NCBI RefSeq assembly: GCF_000024545.1 | Contig: NC_013947.1 | Location: 1,674,001 to 1,738,000, forward strand | DNA from: Stackebrandtia nassauensis DSM 44728 | Lineage (GTDB): Bacteria; Actinomycetota; Actinomycetes; Mycobacteriales; Micromonosporaceae | Length of the DNA: 64,000 nt | Direction of reading: 5' to 3' | Part shown: positions 1 to 26,585 of the stretch, one piece after another | Layout: each line of letters begins with the position of its first letter | Position numbering within the stretch: the first letter of the stretch is position 1 | Position numbers and translations under genes: made by a program | The notes under the pieces: generated by a model | What the model was told of the DNA's origin: nothing | Databases searched by the model: none | What the model saw: the letters and a program-made list of their open reading frames with translations, nothing else

Positions 1-2
1 AG

Positions 3-1313
3 GCAATTGAAGGACTTTGTAGTAAAGGAGGAACATCGATAAGTCAGAGCGATGCTGCTTCGCGTCGTTATAATGGAGTACCACTTAGTACAGACCCACC
101 ATACTACGACAATATCAGTTATTCAGATCTTTCCGACTACTTCTATGTGTGGCTTCGGCGATCACTATGGTCAATTTATCCCGATCTGTTTGCAACGGTG
201 CTTGTGCCGAAAGAGCAGGAACTTGTCGCTAACCCGTATCGCCATGGAGGCAAGGCGAAGGCAAGGAAATTCTTTGAAGACGGTTTTCGAAAGGTCTTTA
301 CTCTTGCTCGTAACGCTGACCGTATGGGCTTGCCCATAACTGTTTACTATGCATTCAAGCAGAACAGCATTGATGAAACGGGCAAAGCTTCAACGGGTTG
401 GGAAACCTTCCTGGAAAGCATGATCCATGCTGGCTGGGAGATAACGTCTACATGGCCGTTGCGCAGCGAGCTTTCGAACCGAATGTTGGCAAGCGGAACG
501 AATTCGCTCGCCTCCTCAATAGTACTGTCCCTTCGACCGTGTCCTAAGAATGCTTCTACGACGGATCGACGAGGGTTTATTAGAGCTCTGGAAGCCGAAC
601 TTCCCGAAGCGCTACGCAAAATGCAGCATGGTCAGATTTCCCCTGTCGACTTGCCGCAAGCCGCGATCGGTCCCGGAATGGCGGTGTTCAGTCGTTACGC
701 TGCGGTAATCGAGAACGATGGTTCAAAGATGTCCGTCAGATCAGCACTGGCTCGGATCAATGAGGTTCTCGACCAAGTACTGTCCGAACAAGAGGGTGAC
801 TTCGACGAGACCACTCGCTTCGCCGTCACGTGGTACCGCCAGCACGGATATGGGGCGGGAGAGTTCGGCAACGCGGACAGTCTCGCCCGGGCTCGAAACA
901 CCAGTGTCGACACGATGAGTGGTGCCGGGATTCTTACGAGCCGAGCAAGCAAGGTTCAACTCATCAGACCGTTGGACCTGCCGAAGAAGTACCACGTACT
1001 CCAAGACGGTGTCACCAGCAATTGGGAAGCGCTGCATCACCTAGTCAAAATCGTGGAACGCAATGGGATCCCGCGAGCTGGCGAATTTCTTCACACCGCG
1101 TTGAGCCGCTCGGAGGAAGAGATCAACGCAGACATCATCAAAGAACTTGGCCACCTGTTGTTCCGTATCTCCGAAAACCACGGTTGGGCCCATGACGCGC
1201 TTAGCTTCAACAACCTAGTTACAAGCTGGCCCGAGATCCTCGAGGCGGCGCGATCCGCAGAAGAGCCTGGATACATGCAGCCCTCACTGAACCTTCCCGA
1301 CGAGGACAACTGA
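3..1313 (+). CDS. DUF1156-family adenine DNA methyltransferase, C-terminal part (5' end outside window)
   Basis: The frame is open from base 3 to the stop at 1311-1313, so only about 436 C-terminal residues are present; the family is usually near 900-1000 aa. DPPYYD (bases 93-110) is the amino-methyltransferase motif IV, followed by NISYSDLSDYFYVWLRR, the hallmark stretch of DUF1156 proteins. It should methylate adenine N6 in host DNA as the modification arm of a defence cassette. It sits one base upstream of the DUF499 ATPase gene, so the two are probably co-transcribed. Base composition is clearly more AT-rich than the next gene, which hints at separate acquisition or mosaic assembly. The family assignment is firm; the role in defence rests on family knowledge. 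Confidence 0.88.
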   Translation, partial: AIEGLCSKGGTSISQSDAASRRYNGVPLSTDPPYYDNISYSDLSDYFYVWLRRSLWSIYPDLFATVLVPKEQELVANPYRHGGKAKARKFFEDGFRKVFTLARNADRMGLPITVYYAFKQNSIDETGKASTGWETFLESMIHAGWEITSTWPLRSELSNRMLASGTNSLASSIVLSLRPCPKNASTTDRRGFIRALEAELPEALRKMQHGQISPVDLPQAAIGPGMAVFSRYAAVIENDGSKMSVRSALARINEVLDQVLSEQEGDFDETTRFAVTWYRQHGYGAGEFGNADSLARARNTSVDTMSGAGILTSRASKVQLIRPLDLPKKYHVLQDGVTSNWEALHHLVKIVERNGIPRAGEFLHTALSRSEEEINADIIKELGHLLFRISENHGWAHDALSFNNLVTSWPEILEAARSAEEPGYMQPSLNLPDEDN

Positions 1314-1314
1314 C

Positions 1315-4300
1315 ATGGCCACCAGCAACCGCGACCGCATAGGCCAGATGTTCGACCTCCTAGCCCCCCAACTAGACGGCTTCCTCTCCCGAATCCTCAA
1401 CCGCCAACTCGGCGCCGGGCGCACCTGGGTCGACATCGTCACCGCCGCCGAAGCTAACAACGGCCGCGAAGTGCACCACGGCGACATCTCAATCCAGCTA
1501 AAGCTCATCACCCAGAACTACACCAACCGCTTCCGATCTGGCTGGAATCCCCTTCGCTCGCATCTCAACCGCACCCACGAGGCCTACGCCTCCGAGCTCC
1601 TGCAAGTCCGTCACACCTGGGCCCACGGTAAAGCTTTCACCGACGACGACGCCTACCGAGCCCTCGACACCGCCCAGCGCCTCGCCACCGCAATCGGAGC
1701 CGCCGGTACCAGCGACGACATCGCCCAGATCCGACTCAACCTTCGCCGCGTCACGGCCGACAAAGACGACAAGAAAGCTCTCAAAGCCGCAGTCGACAAT
1801 CCCGAAGCCTCTGGCTTGAAACCCTGGCGCGAAGTACTTCCGCCCCACGATGACGTAGCGACCGGCAACTTCCACGCATCCGAATTCGCCGCCGACCTCT
1901 ACAAAGTCTCCACCGGCGGTGAGTTGGACACCGACTACTCTGACCCCGTCGAATTCTTCAATCGCACTTACCTCACCGAAGGTCTGCGTGACCTCATCAC
2001 CCGAGCCGTACGCCGCCTCTCCGGTGACGACAACGCTTCCCCGGTCATCAATCTCCAAACGAACTTTGGAGGCGGAAAAACACACTCGATGCTGTCCCTA
2101 TGGCACATCGCCGCCGGACTCCCCATCGGCGAATTCTCCCAGGACACCCAAGAACTGCTAACCGCAAGTGGCTACAACGGCGAGAAGATCAACCGAGTCG
2201 CGATCGTCGGCAACCACCTCAGCCCCACAGGATCCACAAAAAACGACGGCATGCAGGTCAACACGATCTGGGGCGAACTCGCATGGCAACTTGGCGGCGC
2301 CGAAGCCTTCGAACTCGTCGCCGCCGCCGACAGAGATCGCACGCATCCCGGAGACGCCCTGCACGACCTACTGGCCCTGTACTCCCCAGCCGTGATCCTG
2401 ATCGACGAATGGGTTGCCTACGCTCGGTCCTTGGTTGGCCGCGACGACCTCGCCGGCGGCACCTTCGACGACCAGTTCACATTTGCTCAGTCTCTCACCG
2501 AGACCGCAAAGGGCACCTCCGGAATCCTGCTAGCCATCTCCATCCCCGCATCCGAGCGCGGTGAGAACGCCGAACCCGTCGCAGGCACCGCCGAAGAGGT
2601 CGGCGGAACCAACGGGCTTGAGGCTCTGGAACGACTTCAGAACGTCGTGCGGCGAGTAGCTGACCAGTGGCGTCCCGCCTCATCTGACGAGGCTTACCAC
2701 ATCGTGAAGCAGCGGCTGTTCAAACAGGTCGACGCCGCCGCGCTCGCCGCGATCAGCGCCACTGCTCGCGCCTATGTGGACATGTATCGCAAGTACACCG
2801 ATGACTTCCCTCGCGAAGCAAGAAACTCTGCGTACGAGAATCGAATCAAGCGAACGTACCCGATCCACCCAGAACTGTTCGACACTCTCTACGAAGAGTG
2901 GTCGTCACTGGAACGCTTCCAGCGCACCCGTGGCGTGCTCCGTCTGATGAGTATGGTTATCCACGCATTGTGGACTGGCGAGGATGCCGCGCCGCTGATC
3001 ATGCCGTCGTCGATCCCGCTGGCAGCAGGGAAGGTGAACTCTGAACTAACTCAGTACCTTCAAGATTCCTGGAAAGCGATCATCGATGCCGATGTGGATG
3101 GGCCAAACTCAGAACCCGCCAGGATCGATGCGGAGAAACCGCTCTACGGCCAACGGTCGCTGACCAAGCGCCTCGCGCGGACGGTGTTCTTCGGCGCAGC
3201 ACCGACCATCGCGCCCAAATCGATTCATAAGGGTGTCAGCGCCAAGCGAGTCTTCCTAGGCACCGCCGTTCCTGGTGATGTCCCAGGGAACTTCCACTCC
3301 GCGCTAACACGGCTCTGTGACCGGGCGACGTACTTCTATTCCGGTTCCGGAAAGTACTGGTACGACCTCCAACCCAACATCACGCGTACCGCGAAGGACC
3401 AAGCCGAGAGGTTGCACAAAGAGGATGTGTGGGCCGACATCGTCCGTCGACTCAAACATCAGACCAACACGCGCGGCGACTTCACCGGACTGCACATCTG
3501 CCCCGAAACCAACGCCGACATCCCTGACACCGACGAAGCCCGTTTGGCAATCCTTCACCCCAAGGTCGCGCACAAGCGCGCTATCGAGTCGGTGGCGAAG
3601 GATTTCGCCAAGAGGGCCACCGAACAGCGGGGAAGCGCCAACCGCACTCACCGCAACATGCTCGTCTACCTCGCGGCCGATGAAGACCGGTTGGAAGAGC
3701 TTGAGGCAGCTATTCGCGACTACCTAGGCTGGAAACATGTCCTCGACAACGAGGTGGATCTCGATCTGACCCAGAATCAGAAGAAGCAGGCAGAGCAGCG
3801 CCAGGAACAGGCCGATCAAACGGTGACTACGCGCCTGCTGCAAACCTTCGTCTGGGCGCTCATCCCCGCGCAGCCCGATCCGAGCGCGCCGTTCGTCGTG
3901 CGGGAAATCAAGGTTGAAGGACAGTCCGATGCGCTCGCAGAGCGGGTTTCGCGACGCCTCAGCAACGATGGTGACCTGTCCACTCGTCAAGCGGCCGCGA
4001 CGATCCGACTGGCTATCAACAAAGTGCCGCAGATCTGGAACGACGGTCACGTCTCCCTTGGAACTCTGTGGGGCCTCTGCAGCCAATATCCCTACATGCC
4101 GCGCCTGCGTGACCGCCGTGTCCTCAATGAGGGCATAGTCGACATTCCGTTGATCTGGCAGACCGACGCTTTCGCGCTCGCAGAAGGCTACGAGGAATCA
4201 GACGGCCACTACGTCAACCTTTGGATCCCGGACGACAACCGGCCACCTCCACCGGCTACCGATTCTCTCCTGGTCGTCCGCCCTGATGTTGCCACCGCAC

Positions 4301-4644
4301 AGAGGAACACCGAAGAAGCCACTGCGGAACCAATCGTTGGACCCATCGGACTGGACACTGAGAACCCCATCAAGCCAGATCCCCAACACCCCAGCCCTCA
4401 GCACCTCCACGTCAAGACTCGCTTCTTCGGTGTCAAGACCCTCAACAGCGAAAAAATGGCGCTGGGATTCAAGAACATCGCTGAGGAAGTCATCGCTCAT
4501 CTGCGCGCGGACACGAGCACCGTCACCGTGCGGATCGAGATTGAAGCGACTGACGAGTCCGGCTTTGACGAGAACCGTGTGCGTACGGTCTCCGAGAACG
4601 CACGCACCCTCAAGTTCGACCAGTCCGGCTTCGAGGAAAGCTGA
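1315..4644 (+). CDS. DUF499 ATPase with N-terminal Swt1-type HEPN domain
   Basis: 1109 aa. Residues 1-125 match the Swt1-family HEPN pattern and contain R99-HTWA-H104, an intact R-x4-H ribonuclease motif, followed by DDDAYRALDTAQRL. The DUF499 ATPase core has Walker A GGGKTH near residue 252 and Walker B VILIDEW near 361-366. DUF499 proteins accompany DUF1156 methylases in antiviral cassettes. Here the ATPase probably couples sensing of foreign DNA to nuclease or helicase action, and the HEPN domain could cleave RNA. The ATG follows the methyltransferase stop by one base and has a GAGGAC ribosome site. It converges with the helicase gene at 4711. Cytoplasmic; no signal peptide or membrane segment. 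Confidence 0.88.
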   Translation: MATSNRDRIGQMFDLLAPQLDGFLSRILNRQLGAGRTWVDIVTAAEANNGREVHHGDISIQLKLITQNYTNRFRSGWNPLRSHLNRTHEAYASELLQVRHTWAHGKAFTDDDAYRALDTAQRLATAIGAAGTSDDIAQIRLNLRRVTADKDDKKALKAAVDNPEASGLKPWREVLPPHDDVATGNFHASEFAADLYKVSTGGELDTDYSDPVEFFNRTYLTEGLRDLITRAVRRLSGDDNASPVINLQTNFGGGKTHSMLSLWHIAAGLPIGEFSQDTQELLTASGYNGEKINRVAIVGNHLSPTGSTKNDGMQVNTIWGELAWQLGGAEAFELVAAADRDRTHPGDALHDLLALYSPAVILIDEWVAYARSLVGRDDLAGGTFDDQFTFAQSLTETAKGTSGILLAISIPASERGENAEPVAGTAEEVGGTNGLEALERLQNVVRRVADQWRPASSDEAYHIVKQRLFKQVDAAALAAISATARAYVDMYRKYTDDFPREARNSAYENRIKRTYPIHPELFDTLYEEWSSLERFQRTRGVLRLMSMVIHALWTGEDAAPLIMPSSIPLAAGKVNSELTQYLQDSWKAIIDADVDGPNSEPARIDAEKPLYGQRSLTKRLARTVFFGAAPTIAPKSIHKGVSAKRVFLGTAVPGDVPGNFHSALTRLCDRATYFYSGSGKYWYDLQPNITRTAKDQAERLHKEDVWADIVRRLKHQTNTRGDFTGLHICPETNADIPDTDEARLAILHPKVAHKRAIESVAKDFAKRATEQRGSANRTHRNMLVYLAADEDRLEELEAAIRDYLGWKHVLDNEVDLDLTQNQKKQAEQRQEQADQTVTTRLLQTFVWALIPAQPDPSAPFVVREIKVEGQSDALAERVSRRLSNDGDLSTRQAAATIRLAINKVPQIWNDGHVSLGTLWGLCSQYPYMPRLRDRRVLNEGIVDIPLIWQTDAFALAEGYEESDGHYVNLWIPDDNRPPPPATDSLLVVRPDVATAQRNTEEATAEPIVGPIGLDTENPIKPDPQHPSPQHLHVKTRFFGVKTLNSEKMALGFKNIAEEVIAHLRADTSTVTVRIEIEATDESGFDENRVRTVSENARTLKFDQSGFEES

Positions 4645-4710
4645 AAATCTCTGCCGCACAGGACTTCCGCCTCGACGATTCCAGTTGCCCAAGGCGAACA
4701 TGGAGACCAA

Positions 4711-7700
4711 TTAGAAGGGTGGCGCACCCTTCTTCCAGTTACGTGGCCAGTCGGCGCTGATACCCATGGCATCGAAATCGCCCAGCTCGATTGTGGCGAA
4801 AGGGTCATCGAGGTAACGAACTTCATCATGCTCCGGGCCCTGCGGATCAACCCTGACCAGCGCAAGCCGATACCGCGGCACGGCGTTCTTGCCAGTCAGG
4901 ACCTCGTTGTGGGTGACAAAGAAATTCTTCGCACCATCAATCCGTGCTTTGACCTCAATTCGGAAAGTTTCACCGTTCGGAGCTGTGGACAGAATGTCGA
5001 AACCCTTGTTGTTGAATGGCTGTTCAACAGGTCGCCGTCCAAGTCCCTGTTCGCTTGCCATCACCAGGTCGACGCCCCGCCGTTCGACCTCCTTGGTCTC
5101 TTTGGCGTGTATGGGTGCGTTAGGCGGCAGATCTCCGTCAAACACGTCGACCGGCAGAATGAGTGCGGCGGTGACTATGAGCGGCGGCTTCGTCGACATC
5201 GAGAGCTGCTGGTCGAACAGTTCCAGTCGACGGCGAAGCCGCACGTCGAGTTCCATGGCCTTGCGGTTGAGGCTTTCGGACGACTCTTTTGGCTTCTCGC
5301 TCTTGTGTTCGTTTTCCGACGCGATCGCGGCATCGTAAAGAAGGCGCTCACTTTCCGCGCGGAGCCTTTGGATGACCAGGTGGCGTGTCTTGGAGAGTTC
5401 GGTAGTGCGCGAGGACTGAACCTCGGCAAGGTAGTCCGGTAGCCGGTTGGTGATGATCCAGCTGATCGCCTTGTCCTCCGCGTCCGCAAGCCACGATTGA
5501 GCGCGAACCCCCGCGACGGTGGGCGTCTCAGGAGCGGCGACACAGTCGAGGTAAGGCGCCGGTCCAGCAGGTTTGACCACACCGGAACTGTCGACGAACG
5601 CATACCCGAAACGGCGCGCCACGCTGGCTCCGGTCGCGTCCACGACCTCCTCGATGACGCCCACGAGCAAGTGGATCTCGTCGAGGGTCGCGGACACCAG
5701 CACAGTGCCGGAATTGAGAACGCTGTTGAACTTCTTGATGGAGTCAGTCATCACAGCGTCGTGCAGCGGATGTCCGGGCGCTAGAAGATCTGCCCGAGGT
5801 TGGCCAGCAGCACCAGTGGCATGATCAAGATCGAAGGTAACCCGCTCGTAGCGTGTCGCGATGGGCCAGCCCTGACCGGTCCTGAGATGCGCCGGCACGT
5901 TGGTGATCTCGTAACGCCCGCGTTCTCGTCTTGCGATACGACCGCCGAGCCGGGTGAACGCCGCTTTGAAGGCGAGCTCGATGTAGTGCGGTTGTAGGCG
6001 TCGGGCACGTGCTTCGTCCATTGCGGCACGTAGTTCCGCGAGATCCGCTTCAGCGAGGTGCTCGACTGCGAGAGCCCGTTCGTTCAGCAGTTCTTTGACG
6101 CCGTCCCCGACGCTGGCATCGATGATCTGGTGCATCTTCGCTCGGATATCGGGGCGTTCGCCGTACTGGATCGCGTCCAACAGCAGGTTTCGCAGTGGGG
6201 TCTCGGTGAACGCCTCACCGAGGACGTCGAACACCTTTCCCCCATACGCTCTGCCCATCTCGCTGATCTTCTCCAGCAAGCGCGTGAAAACCTCACCCTC
6301 GCGTGTGTTGGAAGCGACGATGTTCCACAGCCGACAGACCTCTTCCTGGCCGATGCGGTGGATCCGGCCGAAACGTTGTTCGATCCGGTTCGGATTCCAT
6401 GGCAGGTCATAGTTCACCATCAGGTGAGCGGCTTGCAGGTTCAAGCCCTCACCGGCGGCGTCGGTGGCGATGAGGATTTGGCAGTCACTGTTCTGTGTGA
6501 ACTCCTCGGTGATCTGACGTCGCTCACCGCGGCGTACGCCACCGTGGATGGCTCGGACAGCGTCTGGGCGGCCCAGGAGAGAGGTGATACGCCCCCGGAG
6601 GTACTCGAGGGTGTCGCGATGTTCGGTGAAGATGATGAACTTCCGCGGGGAGCCGCTCTTGTCTGTGATCAGTGCGTTGTCTTGGAGGATTGTCGACAAT
6701 TCAGTCCATTTGCGGTCCTTTCCTGAGTCACGGACCTGCTTGGAGAGTGTCGTCAACGTGGTCAGATCGTCCAGCTCTTTTTCGAGTTCTGTCACAGTCT
6801 GGGCCGCGGTCGCGGAGTCGAGGAGTTCCTCCTCGAGGGTTTCGATCTCTTCGGCGTTGTAATCATCGAAGTCGAGTCCACGAAGATCGATGGAGGGTTC
6901 GATCTCCTGATTCGTGCCGTCAAGGATCTCGCGCTTCTTGCGCTCCAGACGCCGTGACCGCCGAACCAGACTCTGATAGATCGCTTCCGGGCTGGAGGCG
7001 AGTCGACGCTGCAGCACCGTCAGCGCGAACCCGACGGTGTTCCTTCGTTTGCCACCAAGCTTCTCCGCTCGGTTCATTCCGGTGCGCACGTATTCGGTAA
7101 CCCGCTCATACAAGTGGCATTCATCGGCGGTGAGCTCATATGGAACAGTCTCGGCGATCCGCTCGGGAAACAGTTTCCTGCCGTCGAAAGTGAGGAGGTC
7201 CTCTTTGATCATTCGTCTCATGATGCCGCCAGTGTCGACGGCGGACTTGGAGCGGCCCTCGAACCGGTCCCGGTCCAACAGCGTGAGGAAAAGTTGGAAG
7301 TCTTCTTCCTTGCCCGAATGAGGGGTCGCCGTCATCAGCAGGAAATGGCGGGTGATCTGGCCGAGTAGCTCACCGAGCTGGAAGCGCTTGGTCTTCTCCA
7401 GCTTGCCGCCGAAGTAGTGTGCTCCCATCCGATGCGCTTCGTCCACGATGATCAGATCCCATTCGGTCTCCTTCAACTGTGCTCGCAACTCATCGTTTCG
7501 GGAGAGTTGATCCATGCGCGCGATCAACAGCGGGCTGGATTCGAAGACGTTCAGATTGACGCTCGCCTCGATGAGCTGGTTCGTGAGCAGGTCGAAACGC
7601 AGTCCGAACTTGAAGAACAGTTCGTCCTGCCACTGTTCGACCAATCCGCCCGGTGCCACTACGAGACAACGCTGCACGTCGTCGCGCAGGATCAGTTCCT

Positions 7701-8124
7701 TGATGTAAAGCCCCGCCATGATCGTCTTGCCTGCGCCCGGGTCGTCCGCGAGCAGGAATCGCATCGGTGTACGTGGAAGTAGTTCGCCGTAGACGGCGTG
7801 AATCTGGTGCGGCAACGGCCGGACGTCGCTGGTCGCGACCGCGAGCATCGGATCGAACAGACCAGCCAGTGTGATCCGCTGTGCTTCGGCGACGAGCTTG
7901 AAGTCATTCGCGGGGGCGTCGAAGGCACGACTCCCGGTACGGGCTGTCGAAAGCGAGTGTTCGTCCTTTCGAAACACCACTCGCTGCGCGAGTCCTCCCG
8001 CAGCAGTCTTGTAGGTCAGTTCCAATGCGTCGGTGCCATGCCACTGTGCCGCGATGACGGTGACAACCTCAGCGGGAATGACCCCTGCCAGCCGTGATCC
8101 GGGGGTAATTTCATCGAGCAGCAT
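4711..8124 (-). CDS. SNF2-type helicase, DrmD-like, with C-terminal DUF3883
   Basis: 1137 aa. Walker A is ADDPGAGKT (residues 126-134), the DEAH box lies in LIIVDEAHRMG (near 228), and the second RecA domain shows ATDAAGEGLNLQ, DLPWNPNRIEQR and RIHRIGQ, typical of SNF2/RapA helicases. The last ~110 residues (EVERRGVDLV..., FRIEVKAR) match DUF3883, found at the end of DISARM DrmD-type helicases. Function by family: ATP-driven translocation on incoming DNA. It points toward the DUF499 gene with 66 bp between, so the cassette has two converging transcripts. The ATG is preceded by GAGGGGCACCC. Low-scoring alternative: a general RapA-like helicase. Confidence 0.88.
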   Translation of the reverse strand: MLLDEITPGSRLAGVIPAEVVTVIAAQWHGTDALELTYKTAAGGLAQRVVFRKDEHSLSTARTGSRAFDAPANDFKLVAEAQRITLAGLFDPMLAVATSDVRPLPHQIHAVYGELLPRTPMRFLLADDPGAGKTIMAGLYIKELILRDDVQRCLVVAPGGLVEQWQDELFFKFGLRFDLLTNQLIEASVNLNVFESSPLLIARMDQLSRNDELRAQLKETEWDLIIVDEAHRMGAHYFGGKLEKTKRFQLGELLGQITRHFLLMTATPHSGKEEDFQLFLTLLDRDRFEGRSKSAVDTGGIMRRMIKEDLLTFDGRKLFPERIAETVPYELTADECHLYERVTEYVRTGMNRAEKLGGKRRNTVGFALTVLQRRLASSPEAIYQSLVRRSRRLERKKREILDGTNQEIEPSIDLRGLDFDDYNAEEIETLEEELLDSATAAQTVTELEKELDDLTTLTTLSKQVRDSGKDRKWTELSTILQDNALITDKSGSPRKFIIFTEHRDTLEYLRGRITSLLGRPDAVRAIHGGVRRGERRQITEEFTQNSDCQILIATDAAGEGLNLQAAHLMVNYDLPWNPNRIEQRFGRIHRIGQEEVCRLWNIVASNTREGEVFTRLLEKISEMGRAYGGKVFDVLGEAFTETPLRNLLLDAIQYGERPDIRAKMHQIIDASVGDGVKELLNERALAVEHLAEADLAELRAAMDEARARRLQPHYIELAFKAAFTRLGGRIARRERGRYEITNVPAHLRTGQGWPIATRYERVTFDLDHATGAAGQPRADLLAPGHPLHDAVMTDSIKKFNSVLNSGTVLVSATLDEIHLLVGVIEEVVDATGASVARRFGYAFVDSSGVVKPAGPAPYLDCVAAPETPTVAGVRAQSWLADAEDKAISWIITNRLPDYLAEVQSSRTTELSKTRHLVIQRLRAESERLLYDAAIASENEHKSEKPKESSESLNRKAMELDVRLRRRLELFDQQLSMSTKPPLIVTAALILPVDVFDGDLPPNAPIHAKETKEVERRGVDLVMASEQGLGRRPVEQPFNNKGFDILSTAPNGETFRIEVKARIDGAKNFFVTHNEVLTGKNAVPRYRLALVRVDPQGPEHDEVRYLDDPFATIELGDFDAMGISADWPRNWKKGAPPF

Positions 8125-8281
8125 GGGTGCCCCTCACCAGCTCCCGGTGTCTGACCGAGAGGCTCAGCATCCTTGTTTCGGCCCCCGTTTGCATCGATGC
8201 TCATCGCACAAACGACACACATTGAGGGTAGCTGTTCGTGTTGGTTCCTCACCACATCTGGTGTAGGTACTAAAGCCCTAT

Positions 8282-8295
8282 CCCCCTTGTGGGGG
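8282..8295. other. short CCCCC-TTGT-GGGGG hairpin in the 8125-8352 gap
   Basis: A 5-bp perfect stem with a TTGT loop lies between the divergently read helicase and membrane-protein genes. It could fold in the leader of the latter or be fortuitous in G-rich DNA. Nothing else in the 228-bp gap looks like a gene. Confidence 0.25.
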
Positions 8296-8352
8296 AGGGG
8301 GTCAACCCGTCGGGGTCAGGCGGTGGGACGGACGCGCGAACAGCATGGACCC

Positions 8353-9564
8353 ATGACCGCGACGACGACGAACCCGACCCGGTATCGGGCGCTGACCTGG
8401 GCACCGGTGGCGGTGCTGGCCTGGACGCTGACCTATGGCGCGATCCGCGTCTACTGGGCGGCCGGGCACATGCCGACTTTCGCGCCGATGCCCGAGGACC
8501 TGGTGATCTTCCCCGGTTGGGGTGCGGTGGGGTTGTGTGTGGCGGCGGGGCTGGCCGCCGTGGGGTTGCGGTTGAGCAGCCGGTCGCGGCTGGTGCTGGC
8601 CGGGGCCTGGGCGACGGTGGCCGCGATCGTGGTCGCCTCGCCGATGTTCCTGTTGGACGTCGTCGGGGGAATCCTTGCGGGGCTTGGCATTCCGGTGAGT
8701 CTCGTGTCGGTCGCCAGTCGGGGCGGGATGCTGTTGGGAGCGGGGCTGCTGGCGGTGGCCGCGGTGGCGTACCAGCGGCGGCTGCGCGGGGCGTGCTCGC
8801 GGTGCGGGCGCCTCGGACGGGCCTCGGACGGGCCCGCTGACGCGCGAGAGCGGTCGGCGCCCGCGTGGGCGGTATGGGCCGCGTACGTCGCGGTGGCCGG
8901 TTGCCTGGTGCGCATCGCCGCCCAGCTGGCGTGGGGCTTCGAGGGCTTCTTGTACGACGGCGGCGCGGCCCTGCTCGTCTTCGAGGTCGGTTTCGTGCTG
9001 GCCGGGGTGCTGTTGCCCACCGCGCTGGTGCACCGGTTCGGGCTGGTGTGGCCGCGGTGGGTGCTGCCGCTGGCCGGACGGCGGGTGCCGCGCTGGCTGG
9101 TGCTGGGCCCGGCGTTCTTCGTCGGCCTCGGGCTGACCGTCTACTTCGGTATGGGCTTGGCGCAGCTGGTCGTCGATACGGTGTCGGGGGCCGCGTTCGT
9201 CGACGACGGTTCCGGTTACGGGGCCGGTTTCATGTGGATCGCGGTCCCGTCCTACTTCGTGTGGGGCGTCGGGGTGGGCGTGGCCGCACTGGCCCGATTC
9301 CGGCAGACCCGACCGCGATGTCGCCACTGCGGACAGTTACACCGCGCGCCTGTCAACCCCCACCTCACGCGTAAAAACTGTCGGGAATGCGACAAATCAG
9401 GCGCGATTGGTGTCGCGCGCCGGACGCTTTTCGGTCCGGGGTTCGGTAAGAATGAAAATCGTGTCCAATATAAGTGTCGAGGAACTCAAGGCCGCCATCA
9501 CCGCCGCGATGCAGCAGGTGAAGGACGGTCAGGCCGCCATCACCGCCGCCATGGAGCGCCTTGA
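8353..9564 (+). CDS. polytopic membrane protein of unknown function, uncertain C-terminus
   Basis: 404 aa from the ATG at 8353. Several hydrophobic helices are visible (for example VAVLAWTLTYGAIRVYW, GWGAVGLCVAAGLAAVGL, LVFEVGFVLAGVLLPTAL, LVLGPAFFVGLGLTVYFGMG). Two Cys pairs, CSRCG near residue 155 and CRHCG near residue 320, look like small zinc or redox knuckles facing the cytoplasm. The frame then runs on through AT-richer, intergenic-looking sequence and overlaps the next gene by 113 bp, so the last ~70 residues are doubtful. A +1 shift would end the protein at a TAA at 9372-9374. I do not recognise the family. It leads the FtsK-type cluster but may be unrelated to it. Confidence 0.6.
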   Translation: MTATTTNPTRYRALTWAPVAVLAWTLTYGAIRVYWAAGHMPTFAPMPEDLVIFPGWGAVGLCVAAGLAAVGLRLSSRSRLVLAGAWATVAAIVVASPMFLLDVVGGILAGLGIPVSLVSVASRGGMLLGAGLLAVAAVAYQRRLRGACSRCGRLGRASDGPADARERSAPAWAVWAAYVAVAGCLVRIAAQLAWGFEGFLYDGGAALLVFEVGFVLAGVLLPTALVHRFGLVWPRWVLPLAGRRVPRWLVLGPAFFVGLGLTVYFGMGLAQLVVDTVSGAAFVDDGSGYGAGFMWIAVPSYFVWGVGVGVAALARFRQTRPRCRHCGQLHRAPVNPHLTRKNCRECDKSGAIGVARRTLFGPGFGKNENRVQYKCRGTQGRHHRRDAAGEGRSGRHHRRHGAP

Positions 9565-9961
9565 GGCCGCGCAGCAGGCCCTCGGCGCGATCCTGAAGGG
9601 CAGCGCCCACGCCTCGGTCACCGGGGCCCAGGCGGCGCTGGCGCAGGCGAACCAGGAACTGGAACAGTCCATGGCGGCCACCGTCGCGGCCGCCGAACAG
9701 GCCGAAGCCTACGCGGCAACGCTGTTATGTCCGATATCGAGACCCTGGGGGCCCGCGTCCGTGGCATCGCGGCCGAGCTTCCGGTGCCCGACACCCAAAA
9801 GGCCGAACAGCGGCTGGCCGAGGCCCACGCCGGGTTGTCGAGCGCGCTGCGGGAATCGGTGGAACCGGCGGGCATCCCGCAGCTGGCGCGGGCCCGCGAG
9901 CACGTCAGCAAGGCGATGGCGGTGCTGTCCACGGCCTCGGACAACCTGGACGAGTATCTGA
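9452..9961 (+). CDS. small helical coiled-coil protein (DUF6244-like), probable stop-loss extension
   Basis: From ATG 9452 the first ~91 residues form a long Ala/Gln-rich helix (VEELKAAITAAMQQ..., ending AEAYAATL) like small DUF6244-type proteins that sit before FtsK-type ATPases in related actinomycetes; that family assignment is from memory. After this the frame continues for 78 more codons of low plausibility over the next gene. Codon 9725-9727 is TTA, where TAA would give a stop overlapping the next start (TAATG), so the natural end is probably 9727 and the stop appears lost by one base. The real product is therefore about 91 aa or a readthrough protein of 169 aa. Confidence 0.55.
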   Translation: MKIVSNISVEELKAAITAAMQQVKDGQAAITAAMERLEAAQQALGAILKGSAHASVTGAQAALAQANQELEQSMAATVAAAEQAEAYAATLLCPISRPWGPASVASRPSFRCPTPKRPNSGWPRPTPGCRARCGNRWNRRASRSWRGPASTSARRWRCCPRPRTTWTSI

Positions 9962-10530
9962 TCTCTATCGGCCTCAACACGGCCGGTAATATCAATGAAT
10001 CGACATCACCCGATGAAACGGTTCCGGTGGAGGTGGCCCCGGGAAGCGCCGACTGGTGGCGGGAACGCGTCAACACGATCTCCGAAGGCGACGCGAAGAC
10101 CGAACCCGGAGAGGTGACAGTGACCAGACTGTTCTCGGAACTGGTAGAACGAGCCCGGCGCGGCGACCGCGACGGCTACCGCGACCGGCTGCTCGTCGCG
10201 GGCGCCGGCAACGGATCCAAACTGCCGGGCCTGTCGTGGCCGCTGATCCGCAACCTCACCGCCGACATCCTCGGCCACGCGCCCACCCCCAAGGACGACG
10301 ACCGGCTGCGCGGCCTGGTGCGGGACCCGGTGCGCCGGCTGCTGCCGAAACTCCCCGAGGACGTCACACTGTCCCAACTGCACGGAGCCTGCAGCCTTCC
10401 CCACGTGGCCAAGGACTCCGAGGGCCGCGAGACCGACGAGAAACCGCACCCCGCCGACACCGCCGCCACCGGCCCGGCGATCGTCGCGGCGCTGCTTTCG
10501 GCCCGCGAGAAGGTGAAGGGGGACCGCTGA
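9727..10530 (+). CDS. hypothetical protein with N-terminal coiled coil, FtsK cluster
   Basis: 267 aa. Residues 1-85 are helical and coiled-coil-like (ETLGARVRGIAAELP..., SALRESVEP, ARAREHVSKAMAVLSTASDNLDEYL). A linker follows, then a compact region (residues ~130-267) with TVTRLFSELVERARRG and SWPLIRNLTADILGHAP. No catalytic motif or membrane segment is seen and I cannot name the family. No clear Shine-Dalgarno sequence precedes ATG 9727, which fits translational coupling to the upstream gene. The stop TGA (10528-10530) shares its A with the ATG of the next small gene. The context suggests a soluble partner of the FtsK-type ATPase. Confidence 0.75.
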   Translation: MSDIETLGARVRGIAAELPVPDTQKAEQRLAEAHAGLSSALRESVEPAGIPQLARAREHVSKAMAVLSTASDNLDEYLISIGLNTAGNINESTSPDETVPVEVAPGSADWWRERVNTISEGDAKTEPGEVTVTRLFSELVERARRGDRDGYRDRLLVAGAGNGSKLPGLSWPLIRNLTADILGHAPTPKDDDRLRGLVRDPVRRLLPKLPEDVTLSQLHGACSLPHVAKDSEGRETDEKPHPADTAATGPAIVAALLSAREKVKGDR

Positions 10531-10724
10531 TGTCCGCGACCGAAGGACCCGGTCGACGATCCACGGCCGTGATGCTCCGCCATCGCGGCCCACACAGCCG
10601 CCCGTCGTCTATCCCCGGGGCCGCCCACGCCATCATCGACACGACAGCCGTTCGCGGCTGGCACGACCTCCCGGCACGGACCCCACTCGTACCCTTCACC
10701 ACTGCGAAAAGGAGGGATCGCTGA
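10530..10724 (+). CDS. 64-residue coupled hypothetical protein
   Basis: A 64-aa frame begins at ATG 10530 inside TGATG and ends at TGA 10722-10724, which again forms TGATG with the FtsK-type gene. Such stop-start overlaps at both ends argue that it is translated. The product is basic (MSATEGPGRRST..., ending TTAKRRDR), with no membrane segment or known motif. Its 3' end also carries the AAGGAGG ribosome site for the ATPase gene, so translation through it could control ATPase expression. It may serve as a leader or coupling peptide rather than a stable protein. Confidence 0.5.
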   Translation: MSATEGPGRRSTAVMLRHRGPHSRPSSIPGAAHAIIDTTAVRGWHDLPARTPLVPFTTAKRRDR

Positions 10725-13384
10725 TGGCCGGATGGCGTTCCCGATTGGCCAGTCACGTCGCCGCCGAACTGTCGACGGCTCGCGGCGCGGTGCGGCAGCT
10801 CGCGCAGCGCGCCGACCGCCGGGCGACCGAGGCCAAACGCGCTGCCTCGCGCGCGATGGACACCGCGCGCGAGAAACAGGCCGCGCTGACCTCGACCCAC
10901 CGCGCCGAGGTCGACCGCATCACGGCCAAGGCGGAGTCCGATATCGACAACGCCGTCGCCGAGCTGACCGAGGTCACGGCGCGACTGTCGGCCCCGTGCG
11001 CCGACGCCGAATGGTCGCGCTGGACCCCCGCGCCGGTCGACCGGTCGCTGGCCGCGCCGCTGCTGCGGGTCGGCAGTCTCGCGATCGGCTCGGCCGACGC
11101 CGAGACCCAGCGCCCGCCCGCGCTGGTCGGTTTGATGGACCACTCGCACCTGCGCATCGCCGGGGCCGCCGAGGCGGCGCTTCCCAGCGTCCTGTTGCGC
11201 GCCATCGGTTGCGCCGAGCCGGGCGCCTGCCGCCTGACCGTCTACGACCCCGAGCGCCTCGGCGGCAGCCTGGCGGGTTTCGCGCCGCTGGCCCCGGCGG
11301 GCCTGCTGAGTTTCGTCGGGCCGCACGGTCTGTCGGACATGCTTGACGAACACGTCGAGCACATCCGCCGCATCAACGCCACCGTCCTGGCCGGAGACCA
11401 CGCTTCCCTGCGGGAACTGGCCGAGACCACCGGACGCCGCCCCGAACCGTGGCGGCTGTTGGTGTTGCTGGGCGCCGAGATGGACGACTGGACCAAGGAC
11501 CAGCGCGCTCAGCTGACCCGCATCCGCCGCACCGGTGTCGCCTGCGGCGTCCACCTCATCGTCGTGGGCACCGACGCCGCCGACGACGCCAACACGCTCA
11601 GCCTCGACACCACCAGCACCACACTGGCCGGTCAGGCCCCGGTGCGGCTCGACCCGGCGCCGCCCTCGGCGCTCATCACCGGAACCTGCCGCCGCATCGC
11701 CGAGGTCTACGCCGCCGGTCCACAGCCGACCCGGCTGTCCGACCTCATCCCCGAGACACTGTGGACCAAGAGCTCGGCCTGCGAGCTGTCGGTCCCGCTG
11801 GGGGAGGGCAGCGACGGCAGGCTCGCCGACATCGTCCTGGGCGACAACCCGCCGCACGCCCTCATCGGCGGGCCCAGCGGTTCGGGTAAGACCAACCTCA
11901 TCTACTCGTGGCTGGGCGCCCTGACGGCGCGCTACCACCCCGACGAGCTGGCACTGTACATGCTGGACTTCAAGGAGGGCGTGTCCTTCGCGCGCTTCGC
12001 CGGTGGCCGCCGCGACCCCAGCTGGCTGCCGCACGTGCGGCTGGTCGGTGTCAACATCAACGACGACCGCGAGTTCGGTCTGGCGCTGCTGCGGTACCTG
12101 CGTCAGGAACTGCGCCGCCGCGCCGAGGCCGCCAAACGCCACGAGGCCACCAAACTGGAGGAACTGCGCGCCGTCGACCCGCAGGGCCGGTGGCCGCGCA
12201 TCATGGCCGTCATCGACGAGTTCCAGGTGTTGTTGGACGGACGCGACTCGGTGGCCGCCGAGGCCGTCGCGCTGCTGGAGGACCTGGCCCGCCGGGGCCG
12301 CTCCCAGGGCATCCACCTGGTGCTGGCCAGCCAGGACGTCGCGGGCATCGAGGCACTGTGGGGCCGTCCCTCGCTGATCGCCCAGTTCACGCTGCGCATC
12401 GCGCTGCCCAAGGCCCGCAGGCTGCTGGCCGAGGCCAACAACCTCGCCGAGGAGATCCCGCGCTACCACGCCGTGGTCAACTCCGATTCCGGTGTCACCC
12501 AGGCGAACCGGGTGGTGCGGCTCCCCAACGCCAGCGACCGCGCGGTGTGGGATCCGTTGCAGGAGAAGCTGTGGAGGCAACGCCCGGCTGACAACGACTC
12601 GCCGCTGCTGTTCGACGGTGACCACGTCCCGGTGCTGCCCGAACGCATCGAACTGCCCACCACCGACCCGACGCCGGTGGCGGTGCTGGGCAAGGCCATC
12701 GACGTGTCCTCGCGGGCCGCGACGCTGCGGCTGACCCGCACGCCGGGCCGCAACCTGGCCATCCTGGGCACCCGCACCACCGAGGCCTGCGACGTGCTGG
12801 CCGGTGCCGCGCTGTCGGTGGCCCGCACCACCGACGTGCGGGTCACGATCTGCTGCCTGGACCCGGACGCCGCCGCGCACGCCTACCGGCTGGCCTGGGC
12901 CTGCGAGGCCGCCGGCTCGACCGTCGACTGGCAGGACAAACTGGACGAGGTCGTGACCGCGTGGGAGGAACAGCCCACCGACCGTCCACATCTGGTGCTG
13001 CTGTACGCGGTGGACGCGGCGGGTTCCTCGCTGACCACCGCGGGCCGCAACGCCTTGCGCAGCATGCTGTTGACGGGTCCGGAGCGCCGGGTCCACACCT
13101 TCGGCTGGTGGCGTTCGGTGCCCCGGCTGCGCGAGGACCTGGGCGGCTACGCGGCCCGCTTCGACGCCATCGACGCCTGGGTGGCCCTGGACGTCCAGGG
13201 CCCCGAACTGGCGCCGCTGTCGCCGCAGCCGGGCGGCCCGGCCTGGTATCCGCGCACCCGCCGCGGCCTGTTCTTCGACCGCGCGGTGCACCGGCAGGCC
13301 GAGGTGCTGATTCCGTACGACACCGAATCCGTGTTGCCGACAGTGGACAACATGCTGACCGGGAGCCCCGCCGATGAGCACTGA
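10724..13384 (+). CDS. FtsK/SpoIIIE-type DNA-translocase-like ATPase
   Basis: 886 aa. The N-terminal ~100 residues are a basic, Ala-rich coiled coil. A central FtsK/SpoIIIE domain carries Walker A GGPSGSGKTN (near residue 385) and Walker B IMAVIDEFQVLL (near 497), followed by RSQGIHLVLASQDV. There are no N-terminal membrane helices as in FtsK and only one intact ATPase domain, unlike the three of EccC. A degenerate second nucleotide-binding-like region follows (RNLAILGTRTTEA near 675). It should be a ring ATPase that moves DNA or protein, perhaps at a membrane site supplied by neighbours. AAGGAGG lies 7 bp before ATG; the next gene starts 11 bp before its stop. Confidence 0.85.
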   Translation: MAGWRSRLASHVAAELSTARGAVRQLAQRADRRATEAKRAASRAMDTAREKQAALTSTHRAEVDRITAKAESDIDNAVAELTEVTARLSAPCADAEWSRWTPAPVDRSLAAPLLRVGSLAIGSADAETQRPPALVGLMDHSHLRIAGAAEAALPSVLLRAIGCAEPGACRLTVYDPERLGGSLAGFAPLAPAGLLSFVGPHGLSDMLDEHVEHIRRINATVLAGDHASLRELAETTGRRPEPWRLLVLLGAEMDDWTKDQRAQLTRIRRTGVACGVHLIVVGTDAADDANTLSLDTTSTTLAGQAPVRLDPAPPSALITGTCRRIAEVYAAGPQPTRLSDLIPETLWTKSSACELSVPLGEGSDGRLADIVLGDNPPHALIGGPSGSGKTNLIYSWLGALTARYHPDELALYMLDFKEGVSFARFAGGRRDPSWLPHVRLVGVNINDDREFGLALLRYLRQELRRRAEAAKRHEATKLEELRAVDPQGRWPRIMAVIDEFQVLLDGRDSVAAEAVALLEDLARRGRSQGIHLVLASQDVAGIEALWGRPSLIAQFTLRIALPKARRLLAEANNLAEEIPRYHAVVNSDSGVTQANRVVRLPNASDRAVWDPLQEKLWRQRPADNDSPLLFDGDHVPVLPERIELPTTDPTPVAVLGKAIDVSSRAATLRLTRTPGRNLAILGTRTTEACDVLAGAALSVARTTDVRVTICCLDPDAAAHAYRLAWACEAAGSTVDWQDKLDEVVTAWEEQPTDRPHLVLLYAVDAAGSSLTTAGRNALRSMLLTGPERRVHTFGWWRSVPRLREDLGGYAARFDAIDAWVALDVQGPELAPLSPQPGGPAWYPRTRRGLFFDRAVHRQAEVLIPYDTESVLPTVDNMLTGSPADEH

Positions 13385-14057
13385 CAACCTGATGGAGACC
13401 TACCGGCTGGCCTGCGAGCGGTACACCAAGGCCGTGGTCTCGGCGACCCGCACCCGCGACGAGGCCGCCGACCGGTACCGCCGGGAGGCCGCCGAGGTCA
13501 AGGAGACCGCGCAGCAGGCGGTGGCCGAACGGGACACGGCGATGCGGGATGCCGTGGCGGCCAAGAAACTCGTCACCGAGGTCGACGACACCTGCGCCGA
13601 CATCTGGCGCCGCCTGGGCTCCTACATCGGTCCCAAGTACACCGTCATCACGCCGCCGCCGGGCACCGCCGAGGACGTCTCCGGGGTCACCGACGTCAAG
13701 GCGATGGTGGAACGCACCCGCCGCACCATCGCCCTGGTACAGCGCGGCGAGGTCCCGTTCGAGCCGCCCAAACGCGCCGTGCCGGTCGCGGCGGTCATCG
13801 GAGTCGTCATCGGGGTGCTGGCCGCCATCGGCGCCGGGATGCTGCTGTCGGACTCCAAGGACGGCCACACCCAGGCCCTCAGCCAGGCGGGCGCGCTGGT
13901 CGTGGTGTTCATCGGCGCCTTCGCGGGGATCCCGGTGCTGTCGGGCTGGCTGGCCACCCGGCACCGCATCGGCCCGCGTCCGATCCACATCGGAGCGTGC
14001 ATCGTGGGCGCGGTGGTGGCGATGTGCGCGATGGCGCCGTTCACCTTCGTCGGCTGA
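13374..14057 (+). CDS. membrane protein with cytoplasmic coiled coil
   Basis: 227 aa, starting inside the FtsK-type gene (11-bp overlap), so the two are coupled. Residues 10-85 form a charged helix (TRDEAADRYRREAAEVKETAQQAV...) and three hydrophobic segments follow: VAAVIGVVIGVLAAIGAGMLL (~145-165), ALVVVFIGAFAGIPVLSGWL (~178-198) and IHIGACIVGAVVAMCAMAPF (~204-224). It likely anchors the ATPase complex to the membrane through its helical domain. Family not recognised. Confidence 0.75.
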   Translation: MSTDNLMETYRLACERYTKAVVSATRTRDEAADRYRREAAEVKETAQQAVAERDTAMRDAVAAKKLVTEVDDTCADIWRRLGSYIGPKYTVITPPPGTAEDVSGVTDVKAMVERTRRTIALVQRGEVPFEPPKRAVPVAAVIGVVIGVLAAIGAGMLLSDSKDGHTQALSQAGALVVVFIGAFAGIPVLSGWLATRHRIGPRPIHIGACIVGAVVAMCAMAPFTFVG

Positions 14058-19288: not shown

Positions 19289-20095
19289 GTGACCGCGATA
19301 CGAGCCAACTCGATACTCCCCGCGCGCCGGGAGGCGCTCACGCTGCACACCGCCGACGGGCTGGAGCTCGTGGGGGAGCTGGCGGTCCCCGAGACCGCCG
19401 AACCCAAGGCCACCCTGGTGTGCGTGCACCCGCTGCCCACCCACGGCGGCATGATGGACAGTCACGTCTTCCGCAAGGCCGCCTGGCGACTGCCCGCGCT
19501 GGCCGACGTCGCCGTGCTGCGCTTCAACACCCGCGGCACCTCCAGCGTCCAGGGCACCAGCCAGGGCAGCTTCGACAACGCGGTGGGGGAGCGCTTCGAC
19601 GTCGCCGCGGCCATCGAGTACGCCGAGTTCGCCGAACTGCCCAACCTGTGGCTGCTGGGCTGGTCCTTCGGCACCGACCTGGTGCTCAAGTACGGACTGG
19701 AGCCCGGCGTCACCGCCGCGATCCTGCTGTCGCCACCGCTGCGCTACTCCACCGACACCGACCTGGCGGCCTGGGCCAAGGACGGACGGCCGCTCACCGC
19801 GCTGGTCCCCGAACACGACCAGTACCTGCGACCACCCGAGGCCCGGCAGCGCTTCGCCGCCATCCCGCAGGCCGAGGTGATCGGCGTCGAGGGCGCCAAA
19901 CACCTGTGGGTGGGGCACGCCGAACTGCTGCTCGACGAGATCACCCGCCGCCTCAACCCGGACGCCGTCCCGCTTCCGTCCACCTGGGACGGACCGATGG
20001 AGTTCGGCGACTCCAGCGCCTACGCCGACCGCACCGTCGCCGCGTTCGCCGACGTCGAGGTGCCCGGCCCGCCGCAGAACGAGGCCGGACGGTAG
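19289..20095 (+). CDS. alpha/beta hydrolase (dienelactone hydrolase-like)
   Basis: 268 aa from GTG 19289. CVHPLPTHGG (~45-54) forms the oxyanion region, S126 in GWSFG is the nucleophile, the acid is probably D in VPEHDQYL and the base H in GAKHLWVGH. This shape matches the short alpha/beta hydrolases that act on small esters or peptides. The substrate is unknown. It converges with the pseudokinase gene, only 4 bp apart, and no terminator is visible there. Confidence 0.85.
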   Translation: MTAIRANSILPARREALTLHTADGLELVGELAVPETAEPKATLVCVHPLPTHGGMMDSHVFRKAAWRLPALADVAVLRFNTRGTSSVQGTSQGSFDNAVGERFDVAAAIEYAEFAELPNLWLLGWSFGTDLVLKYGLEPGVTAAILLSPPLRYSTDTDLAAWAKDGRPLTALVPEHDQYLRPPEARQRFAAIPQAEVIGVEGAKHLWVGHAELLLDEITRRLNPDAVPLPSTWDGPMEFGDSSAYADRTVAAFADVEVPGPPQNEAGR

Positions 20096-20099
20096 CCGC

Positions 20100-21404
20100 T
20101 CAGCACTTCACGTAGTCGCGGATCGTCTCCGGGATGGTGTCGCTGGAGCACGGGTCGCCGATCACGGTCCACACGCCGTCGGACATCCGCAGCGCGACAT
20201 ACTCGACCACCGAGTCGGCCGCGCGCGACTCCGGCGACTTCGACTCCTTGGCGACCTTGGCCGTCACCGCGACGTAGCCGTCCTGGCCACACAGTTTGTC
20301 GGTGATGGAGCTCTCGCCGTACACCTCGGTCACCGCGTCGGTCAGCACCGAGTCGCTGGGGCACGGTTCGGCCGGGTCGGCGTGCGTCACCGCGAAGGTC
20401 GCCAGCCCCGCCCCGGCCGTGGCCAGGAACGCCGCCGTGAACGCCACGACCACCTTCACCGACCGGGGAAGCCGGAATCGCCTGGGGGAGCGGCGTTTGG
20501 ACTGCACCGCGATGTCGGCGCCACCCGGCAGCGGCGCCGGACGCGGTCCCGAGCGGGGGACCAGTGCCGGGCACACCGTCGTGGGCTGCCGTCCGGCCGC
20601 CAGCGGCCGCGAAGTGTCGACATTGGCCAACAGGTCGCGCAGTCCGGCGGCGCTGGGACGTTTGCGGGGGTCGACGTTCATGGCCGCGCCCAGCACGTCG
20701 GTCAGCGCGATGCTGACGCCGGGGATGTCGGGGATGGGCGCCGCCCGCAGCAGCGGATCGGTGGTGTCCTTGCCCGACACGGTGACCCACGGCAGCCGCC
20801 CGCCGAGCGACGCGTACAGCAACGTGGCGAGATTGTGGACGTCGGCGGCCGGGCTGGCGTGCATCGAACCGGCCTTGGCCGCGTCCAGGTGCTCCGGCGC
20901 GGTGTAGGCGCTGGGCGGCAGACAGTGCGCCAGCACCGGTGCGGTGGCGTCGAACCCGGCGACCAGCAGTTTGCGTCCGGTACTGGACAGGATCGTCGCC
21001 GGTTGCAGGGCACCGTGAATCAGGCCGGTGCCGTGGATCGTGGCCAGCGTGTCGGCCAGCGCGACCCCGAAGGCCCGCACCTGCCCGGCCGGGGGCGGCC
21101 CGGCCTCACGCAGATTGTCGGCGAGGGTCGCGCGGGTGGCGCGCACCGCGATGTACGGGCATGCGTCCTGGGTGAGACCCACCGCGGACACCGGCGCGAT
21201 GTGCGGGTGCGCGGACAGGTGCGTCAGCTTGGAGCCCCAGTCCAGGAACACTTCCCGTGCCGACCCGTCGACGCGCTGATGGGCCAGGGTGACGACGACG
21301 GGTGTCCGTGCTTCGCCCAAGGTGCCGGTGTAAACCCCGGCGGCGGCATCACGGTGCAGTAAACGCGTCAGTTTGACCGCTCCGGCAGTCGAAACCGCAG
21401 GCAT
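20100..21404 (-). CDS. membrane-anchored Ser/Thr pseudokinase
   Basis: 434 aa from ATG 21404, chosen because GGAGGTGTGC precedes it; the frame extends upstream without support. The kinase fold is recognisable (HGALQPATIL, AYTAPEHLD, ADVHNLATLLY) but key residues are gone: no VAxK lysine (VVVTLAH), HGA replaces HRD, and no DFG (VAGFDA). It should be inactive and act as a scaffold or sensor. One membrane helix (KVVVAFTAAFLATAGAGLATFAV, ~315-337) separates the cytoplasmic part from a ~95-residue external domain with Cys residues, resembling sensory STPK topology. The partner kinase is not in this neighbourhood. Confidence 0.85.
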   Translation of the reverse strand: MPAVSTAGAVKLTRLLHRDAAAGVYTGTLGEARTPVVVTLAHQRVDGSAREVFLDWGSKLTHLSAHPHIAPVSAVGLTQDACPYIAVRATRATLADNLREAGPPPAGQVRAFGVALADTLATIHGTGLIHGALQPATILSSTGRKLLVAGFDATAPVLAHCLPPSAYTAPEHLDAAKAGSMHASPAADVHNLATLLYASLGGRLPWVTVSGKDTTDPLLRAAPIPDIPGVSIALTDVLGAAMNVDPRKRPSAAGLRDLLANVDTSRPLAAGRQPTTVCPALVPRSGPRPAPLPGGADIAVQSKRRSPRRFRLPRSVKVVVAFTAAFLATAGAGLATFAVTHADPAEPCPSDSVLTDAVTEVYGESSITDKLCGQDGYVAVTAKVAKESKSPESRAADSVVEYVALRMSDGVWTVIGDPCSSDTIPETIRDYVKC

Positions 21405-21509
21405 GCACACCTCCACTCCAAAATCCGGCTGCCCCACGCCGAACCCTAATGCACGATTGGGCGGCAGCGCCAGTCCCACTCGAAGGAAACCCGGCAGGTA
21501 GGGTCGCGG

Positions 21510-22625: not shown

Positions 22626-22670
22626 GGCCACTCCCGTGTCAGGGGTTGAGGACTATGCGCGGCTTCTTGA

Positions 22671-24725: not shown

Positions 24726-24960
24726 AAGCCCCATCCTCACACGTGAGCGGTCCCGTCACAGCGAATCCGACGGGACGGCTCACGATTTAACTCGACACCG
24801 TCTGAACTAACCTTCCGGTTAAGCACCTGCCGCATAGACGGTAGCGCGAAAACCTCGGCGCGAGGCAATCACCCCGTGACGAATAGCGGCGATCACATGC
24901 GGTGACGTCATCGCCGTCGAAGGTCCTACCCAGTGGATGCGGGCTCACAAAGCCTGCGGC

Positions 24961-24996: not shown

Positions 24997-25013
24997 ACAC
25001 GGTGAGGCTTTTC

Positions 25014-26559: not shown

Positions 26560-26585
26560 TATGTCGATCCATGAAAGGATTCGTC

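What the first reader, a model, noticed from the sequence alone, without database searches (positions are those of the whole stretch)
3..8124. HEPN-DUF499 / DUF1156 methylase / DrmD-like helicase antiviral cassette
Seen: a DPPY methyltransferase, a DUF499 ATPase and a DUF3883-bearing SNF2 helicase together, with the helicase on the opposite strand. Known: DUF1156, DUF499 and helicase genes co-occur in antiviral cassettes related to DISARM (from memory, similar to the class named Hma in PADLOC). Inferred: an epigenetic self-marking system with an ATPase/helicase effector. No DUF3780, PLD nuclease or DUF1998 partner is visible, so it is either minimal or continues left of the window.
Basis: partly seen in the sequence, partly recalled or inferred. 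Interest (0 to 1): 0.72.

Follow-up and report, generated by a model that had tools for sequence, protein, structure and literature searches.

The report
Known Hma defence locus, one gene flipped
A bacterial chromosome carries a complete three-gene locus of a known kind (Hma) that is predicted to mark the cell's own DNA and to cut unmarked phage DNA, with its helicase gene facing the other two genes instead of leading them as in nearly all relatives examined.

Summary
The window's left edge cuts the methylase gene, which is 920 aa and starts 1,450 bases to the left. The proteins match PADLOC's Hma system nearly end to end: HmaB E=0, HmaA E=0, HmaC 7e-260 (all but its HEPN part). HmaC carries a Swt1-type HEPN domain with an intact Rx4H motif. 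It is neither DISARM nor the DUF3780/PLD system. Published names: Hma (2021), Type-1 BREX-Related (2026); the HEPN-DUF499 fusion was described in 2013. The genes sit on a GC-poor island beside nucS at a site without Hma in four congeners, so it was probably acquired. One thing is unusual: in 54 of 55 loci with all three genes visible the order is A>B>C on one strand; here it is B>C> <A, convergent, a layout found in no other locus, plasmid record or genome checked. Mechanism (inferred): methylate self, restrict unmarked DNA with HmaA, HEPN RNase as back-up. No activity was assayed. Ordinary system, rare layout.

The parts
1..1313 (+). HmaB, C-terminal 436 aa of a 920-aa DUF1156 DNA methylase (gene starts 1,450 bases left of the window at G000:C1:1672551 = L003:16551); DPPY motif (residue 515) at about 93-104
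   Evidence: PADLOC HmaB E=0 over residues 3-905; Pfam DUF1156
1315..4644 (+). HmaC, 1109 aa: Swt1-type HEPN fused to a DUF499 / BrxC-like AAA+ ATPase
   Evidence: (PADLOC HmaC 7.1e-260 over 168-1108)
1345..1698 (+). HEPN_Swt1 domain of HmaC (residues 11-128), predicted RNase
   Evidence: Pfam PF18731 2.3e-27
1609..1626 (+). HEPN Rx4H motif (R99...H104)
   Evidence: invariant in 74 of 74 aligned proteins, window included; 56 of 56 HEPN-bearing loci
2062..2412 (+). Walker A (250-257) to Walker B (361-366) of the HmaC ATPase
4645..4710 (.). 66 bases between the two stop codons (convergent HmaC / HmaA)
4711..8124 (-). HmaA, 1137 aa: SNF2/RapA-like helicase with C-terminal NOV_C nuclease domain
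   Evidence: PADLOC HmaA E=0 over 2-1110; RapA 3.9e-33
4834..5088 (-). NOV_C / DUF3883 domain (residues 1013-1097), predicted PD-(D/E)XK DNase; D1043, E1057, K1059 at 4948-4998
   Evidence: invariant in 36 of 36, window included; 55 of 56 loci
6349..7818 (-). SNF2 helicase core of HmaA (residues 103-592)
8125..8290 (.). Right end of the GC-poor island, upstream of HmaA; holds ATCCCCCTTG (8280), also at L003:16273 on the left side of the island (could be chance)

Best explanation
This is a complete HEPN-type Hma (Type-1 BREX-Related) locus that would likely protect the cell by methylating its own DNA and cutting DNA that lacks the mark, with a predicted RNA-cutting HEPN domain as a likely back-up. 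HmaB is predicted to be an N6-adenine methylase that marks the host; its fast-varying middle part is the likely sequence reader. HmaC, a BrxC-like ATPase, would assemble on DNA and license the attack. HmaA, a RapA-like SNF2 translocase ending in a PD-(D/E)XK-type domain, is the likely DNase. The HEPN domain on HmaC would cut RNA and stop the cell if the first response fails. Shown here: gene content, domains, intact motifs, the resemblance of the HmaC core model to BrxC, the GC-poor island and the gene layout. Inferred: methylation, restriction, RNA cutting, defence, acquisition. The B>C> <A layout is most simply an ancestral A>B>C operon in which the BC block (or A) was inverted, with one break between A and B.
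Confidence: 0.85

Rival explanations
1. HEPN is not an RNase here but a structural or inhibitory cap on HmaC; HmaA alone carries out restriction.
For: The domain as a whole varies fast (identity 0.35-0.60 over residues 1-120 against 0.74 for the protein), and four of 60 HmaC proteins lack it (L090-L093).
Against: The Rx4H pair stays invariant while the rest varies, which suggests selection on catalysis. PMC3710099 Table 1 calls this HEPN group (Ava_2192) active.
Confidence: 0.25
2. The locus is a decayed or silent remnant: with HmaA split off, the BC pair and HmaA are no longer co-expressed and the system does not work.
For: The layout was not seen elsewhere in the sets examined; no promoter-like site before HmaB.
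Against: The three frames are full length with the checked catalytic motifs intact. HmaA leads the usual operon and so may keep its own start signal. Thermus thermophilus plasmids keep another split layout (HmaA divergent) in 11 listed records.
Confidence: 0.12
3. HmaA reached the island separately from HmaBC, from another Hma donor, rather than by inversion of one operon.
For: HmaA lies on the other strand; its tree does not resolve the window's nearest kin.
Against: HmaA and HmaC have the same five nearest rows (Phytomonospora, two Amycolatopsis, Lentzea, Pseudonocardia) at 78-82% identity (trees of the window plus 23 of the 61 loci); GC of HmaA and HmaC is alike (0.599, 0.607).
Confidence: 0.25
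4. The opposite orientation is an assembly error.
For: Only one genome shows it.
Against: The genome is a single contig, 99.59% complete; homology to the seven relatives compared ends at or near the gene ends on both sides of the 66-base junction.
Confidence: 0.04

Closest known systems
Hma system (PADLOC; Payne et al. 2021, PMC8565338)
   Same: All three genes, strong profile matches
   Different: HEPN on HmaC lies outside the PADLOC HmaC model (match starts at residue 168); helicase gene convergent instead of leading
Type-1 BREX-Related (BR) system with HEPN-fused DUF499 (Rakesh & Krishnan 2026, PMC12839542)
   Same: Three genes only, N-terminal HEPN, C-terminal REase-type domain on the helicase, DUF1156 on the methylase; they count 2446 taxa, 1370 of them HEPN-fused
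   Different: Gene layout; their section 29, which I read, does not discuss orientation (figures and supplements not seen)
Ava_2192 HEPN-DUF499 R-M neighbourhood (Anantharaman et al. 2013, PMC3710099)
   Same: HEPN fused to AAA+ (DUF499), SNF2 helicase fused to DUF3883 'novel REase'
   Different: Nothing in kind
BREX (BrxC; type 3 BrxXI, BrxHII)
   Same: HmaC core model matches solved BrxC best; RapA-like helicase
   Different: Three genes; the 14 neighbouring frames scanned with Pfam show no BREX partner
DUF1156-DUF499-DUF3780-PLD system (Type-2 BR; NCBIfam 'antiphage' models)
   Same: Distant homologues of all three genes
   Different: Far below NCBIfam cut-offs: 164.2 of 1200, 115.5 of 1000, 168.4 of 1100
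DISARM (DrmD)
   Same: Helicase core
   Different: DrmD 364.6 bits against a cut-off of 610; no DUF1998 or PLD domain among the frames scanned

Membership tests
Hma (PADLOC) | HmaA, HmaB and HmaC encoded together | tested here: met
Hma (PADLOC) | Protects against phage | not testable with these tools
   no assay; PMC12839542 says an experimental study (Liu 2024, not held) confirmed the helicase's role in a Halomonas system
Type-1 BR | DUF499 ATPase + DUF1156 methylase + SNF2 helicase, no DUF3780 or PglZ in the locus | tested here: met
   no frame between the three genes large enough for a partner (B-C gap 1 base, C-A gap 66); 14 neighbouring frames scanned, none of either family; small ORFs further out were not scanned
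Type-1 BR | C-terminal active PD-(D/E)XK on the helicase (79% of their taxa) | tested here: met
   NOV_C with D1043/E1057/K1059, by sequence motif only; fold not tested
Type-1 BR | N-terminal HEPN on DUF499 (1370 of their 2446 taxa) | tested here: met
Type-1 BR | TUDOR at the helicase N-terminus; RRM at the DUF499 C-terminus | tested here: inconclusive
   models of limited confidence, not searched for these parts
Type-1 BR / Hma | Usual order A>B>C on one strand (usual, not defining) | tested here: not met
BREX-like ATPase | BrxC-like core fold of HmaC | tested here: met
DISARM | DrmD above curated cut-off | tested here: not met
Type-2 BR / DUF3780-PLD system | NCBIfam DUF499_antiphage, DUF1156_antiphage, phospholipD_antiphage above cut-off | tested here: not met

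The most novel reading that the evidence does not exclude
The convergent B>C> <A layout is a working rewiring of a two-effector Hma system: it uncouples the DNA-cutting helicase from the marking-and-sensing pair, so that marking can come first when the island enters a new host and the effector can be tuned on its own promoter, as in convergent restriction-modification systems. The break fell at the A|B junction, one of two slots where Hma operons take up cargo genes.
Probability: 0.2. Interest if true: 0.45.

Novelty: new member of a known kind. Interest (0 to 1): 0.3.

Why it matters
Hma / Type-1 BR is widespread (26 phyla in PMC8565338; 2446 taxa in PMC12839542), and in the papers I saw only its helicase is said to have been tested. 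This locus is a compact copy without cargo genes in which every predicted active site that I checked is intact, so it would serve as a clean test case for whether the HEPN domain backs up the DNase. Its split gene layout also makes it a natural experiment on whether effector and marking genes must be co-transcribed.

Tried and rejected
DISARM and the DUF3780/PLD system: rejected on NCBIfam cut-offs. 'Continues left of the window': only the methylase start does; nucS and an NDH2-like oxidoreductase follow. An invertible switch (phase variation): no exact inverted repeat of 9 or more bases joins the stretch before HmaB to the HmaC-HmaA junction or to the stretch before HmaA (inexact repeats were not sought there). 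One search looked for inverted repeats in L001 only, which is window -1499 to about 4500 and so misses the junction: six imperfect pairs. A target-site duplication: a 10-base direct repeat ATCCCCCTTG flanks the island, but by my own estimate (not a call) about 0.2 such matches arise by chance between stretches of that size; left open. A terminator at 4640-4740: a 9-bp stem at 4713-4733 exists, but the region folds no better than shuffles (z -0.66 and -1.34). Rfam: nothing at gathering score in 1-10000. tRNA-borne integration: no tRNA in L003, nearest in the window at 30142. HmaA structure: model too poor to search. Foldseek on HmaC: nothing at E<=0.001. Solved relatives by sequence: HmaC only E>=0.049, HmaB only E>=0.14. 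PMC12165695 (passages) was read for Swt1-like HEPN domains and not used. A paper search for Hma with gene order or inversion listed nothing on the subject beyond PMC12839542 (listing only). A survey of the phylum was asked once (not completed) and not repeated. Mended on checking: my note gave NOV_C as '56 of 57' where one search shows 55 of 56; the script left out four records that stand in both lists, which adds (all four same strand, A upstream).

Full report
Observation. The first is cut by the window's edge: the whole gene is L003:16551-19313 (920 aa), with DUF1156 at its N-terminus. The second is HEPN_Swt1 + DUF499, the third SNF2 helicase + NOV_C/DUF3883. The host genome is one contig of 6,841,557 bases and shows one HmaC match at E<=1e-30.

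What it is. PADLOC gives HmaB E=0 over residues 3-905, HmaC 7.1e-260 over 168-1108 and HmaA E=0 over 2-1110. DISARM DrmD and the NCBIfam DUF1156/DUF499/PLD 'antiphage' models are all far below their cut-offs. The left neighbours are nucS and a pyridine-nucleotide oxidoreductase, not further defence genes. So the system is complete as a three-gene Hma locus. Literature: PMC3710099 (passages) already lists HEPN fused to DUF499 next to an SNF2-DUF3883 helicase; PMC8565338 (passages) named Hma; PMC12839542 (abstract, passages, sections 27, 29, 40 and part 1 of 35) renames it Type-1 BREX-Related, in 2446 taxa, 1370 with HEPN. PMC7641849 (passages) notes the DUF499 operon too. The experimental paper cited there for HmaA (Liu et al. 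2024) is not held.

Active sites. I examined 61 loci: all 40, 3 of 4 relatives fetched (L054 dropped as the same contig as L014), and 18 of 110 plasmid records with a match, chosen for diversity. The HEPN Rx4H motif is intact in 56 of 56 HEPN-bearing HmaC proteins; four HmaC lack HEPN and one locus shows no HmaC. NOV_C D/E/K is intact in 55 of 56 HmaA proteins (L088 has G for D); five loci show no HmaA. In the alignments R99 and H104 are invariant in 74 of 74 and D1043, E1057, K1059 in 36 of 36, window included. HmaB is least conserved within residues 281-520 (0.40-0.58), with a second low stretch at its C-terminus (0.53-0.55). BR methylases carry a target-recognition insert after core strand 2 (PMC12839542 section 29); whether its borders are those of 281-520 was not tested.

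Setting. The island, L003:about 16280 to window about 8290, has GC of about 0.49-0.62 against 0.67-0.70 in the flanks. HmaB has no match in the four congeners. In L072 and L073, nucS-matching sequence is followed after about 56 and 236 bases by sequence matching window 9379 onward and 9460 onward; in L070 and L071 a symporter-like gene sits there (named by my reading of the translation, no profile search). So this is probably a variable site. No transposase or integrase domain was seen in the 14 neighbouring frames scanned.

Layout. Of 55 loci with all three genes visible (some genes partial), 54 are A>B>C on one strand and one (Thermus thermophilus pVV8, L085) has A inverted at its place, divergent. 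Of 57 plasmid records that stand in both the list (60 of 110 shown) and that (60 of 235 shown), 44 are on one strand with A upstream, 11 divergent (all T. thermophilus) and 2 too far apart (53, 4 added). Of 44 HmaC hits in the order and class samples (397 and 394 genomes, the window's own hit left out), 31 have HmaA within 25 kb: 30 on one strand with A upstream, 1 divergent, 0 convergent; 13 have none nearby, some of them distant family members or on short contigs. These sets overlap. The convergent layout was seen only here. In trees of the window plus 23 of the 61 loci, HmaC groups with Phytomonospora (100/100) beside Amycolatopsis, Lentzea and Pseudonocardia; HmaA is nearest to the same rows but unresolved. 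The simplest account is inversion of the BC block or of A, with a break at the A|B junction. The computed gap there exceeds 300 bases in 19 of 54 loci, and the B|C gap in 21 of 55 (gaps are extrapolated from alignments, L016 is miscounted and L079 uncertain because HmaB is broken there). Here B and C are one base apart.

Mechanism. Marking by HmaB, licensing by HmaC, cutting by HmaA, back-up by HEPN: inferred from domains, intact motifs and PMC12839542's model. None of it was tested here.

Host. From memory, a genome of 6,841,557 bases fits Stackebrandtia nassauensis; no call confirms it.

Verdict. A real, complete, ordinary system with a rare gene layout.

Noticed in passing
window 30142-36000: A second GC-poor stretch (0.574 against 0.685 in 20000-30000) beside tRNA-Leu (30142-30228): an Eco29kI-type restriction enzyme (30653-31507, PF09517 4.1e-44), a C5-cytosine methylase (32269-33723, -) and a GmrSD_N + HNH protein (33940-35946, -): apparently a Type II R-M system next to a Type IV-like nuclease.
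   Followed up: partly
L070, L071, L072, L073 (nucS site in four congeners): The nucS neighbourhood looks like a variable site: almost nothing in two congeners, a symporter-like gene in two, Hma plus a membrane-protein-like frame (window about 8354-9376, GC 0.725) here.
   Followed up: partly
L015, L016, L042 between HmaA and HmaB: A small frame occupies the A|B slot: in L016 a weak DUF1643 match (0.006, below cut-off); L015 reads alike by eye; L042 is known by gap length only.
   Followed up: partly
L085 and ten other T. thermophilus plasmid records: Hma with HmaA inverted to a divergent position; in L085 a Fic gene and a HicAB pair are annotated in the two slots.
   Followed up: no
P0005, P0006 (HmaC homologues, 86% and 85%): The two closest HmaC homologues lie on contigs (6,246 and 10,971 bases) whose lengths do not recur among the 120 listed HmaA homologues; they may share the split layout or simply be cut off.
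   Followed up: no
window 10724-14057: FtsK/SpoIIIE-type ATPase (886 aa) with a 227-aa neighbour right of the island; the ATPase is near nucS in the four congeners too, so probably a core genus locus and not defence cargo.
   Followed up: partly
L003:4587-12250: Subtilase, TPR-CHAT protein, DUF4129 and MoxR-type AAA genes left of nucS.
   Followed up: no
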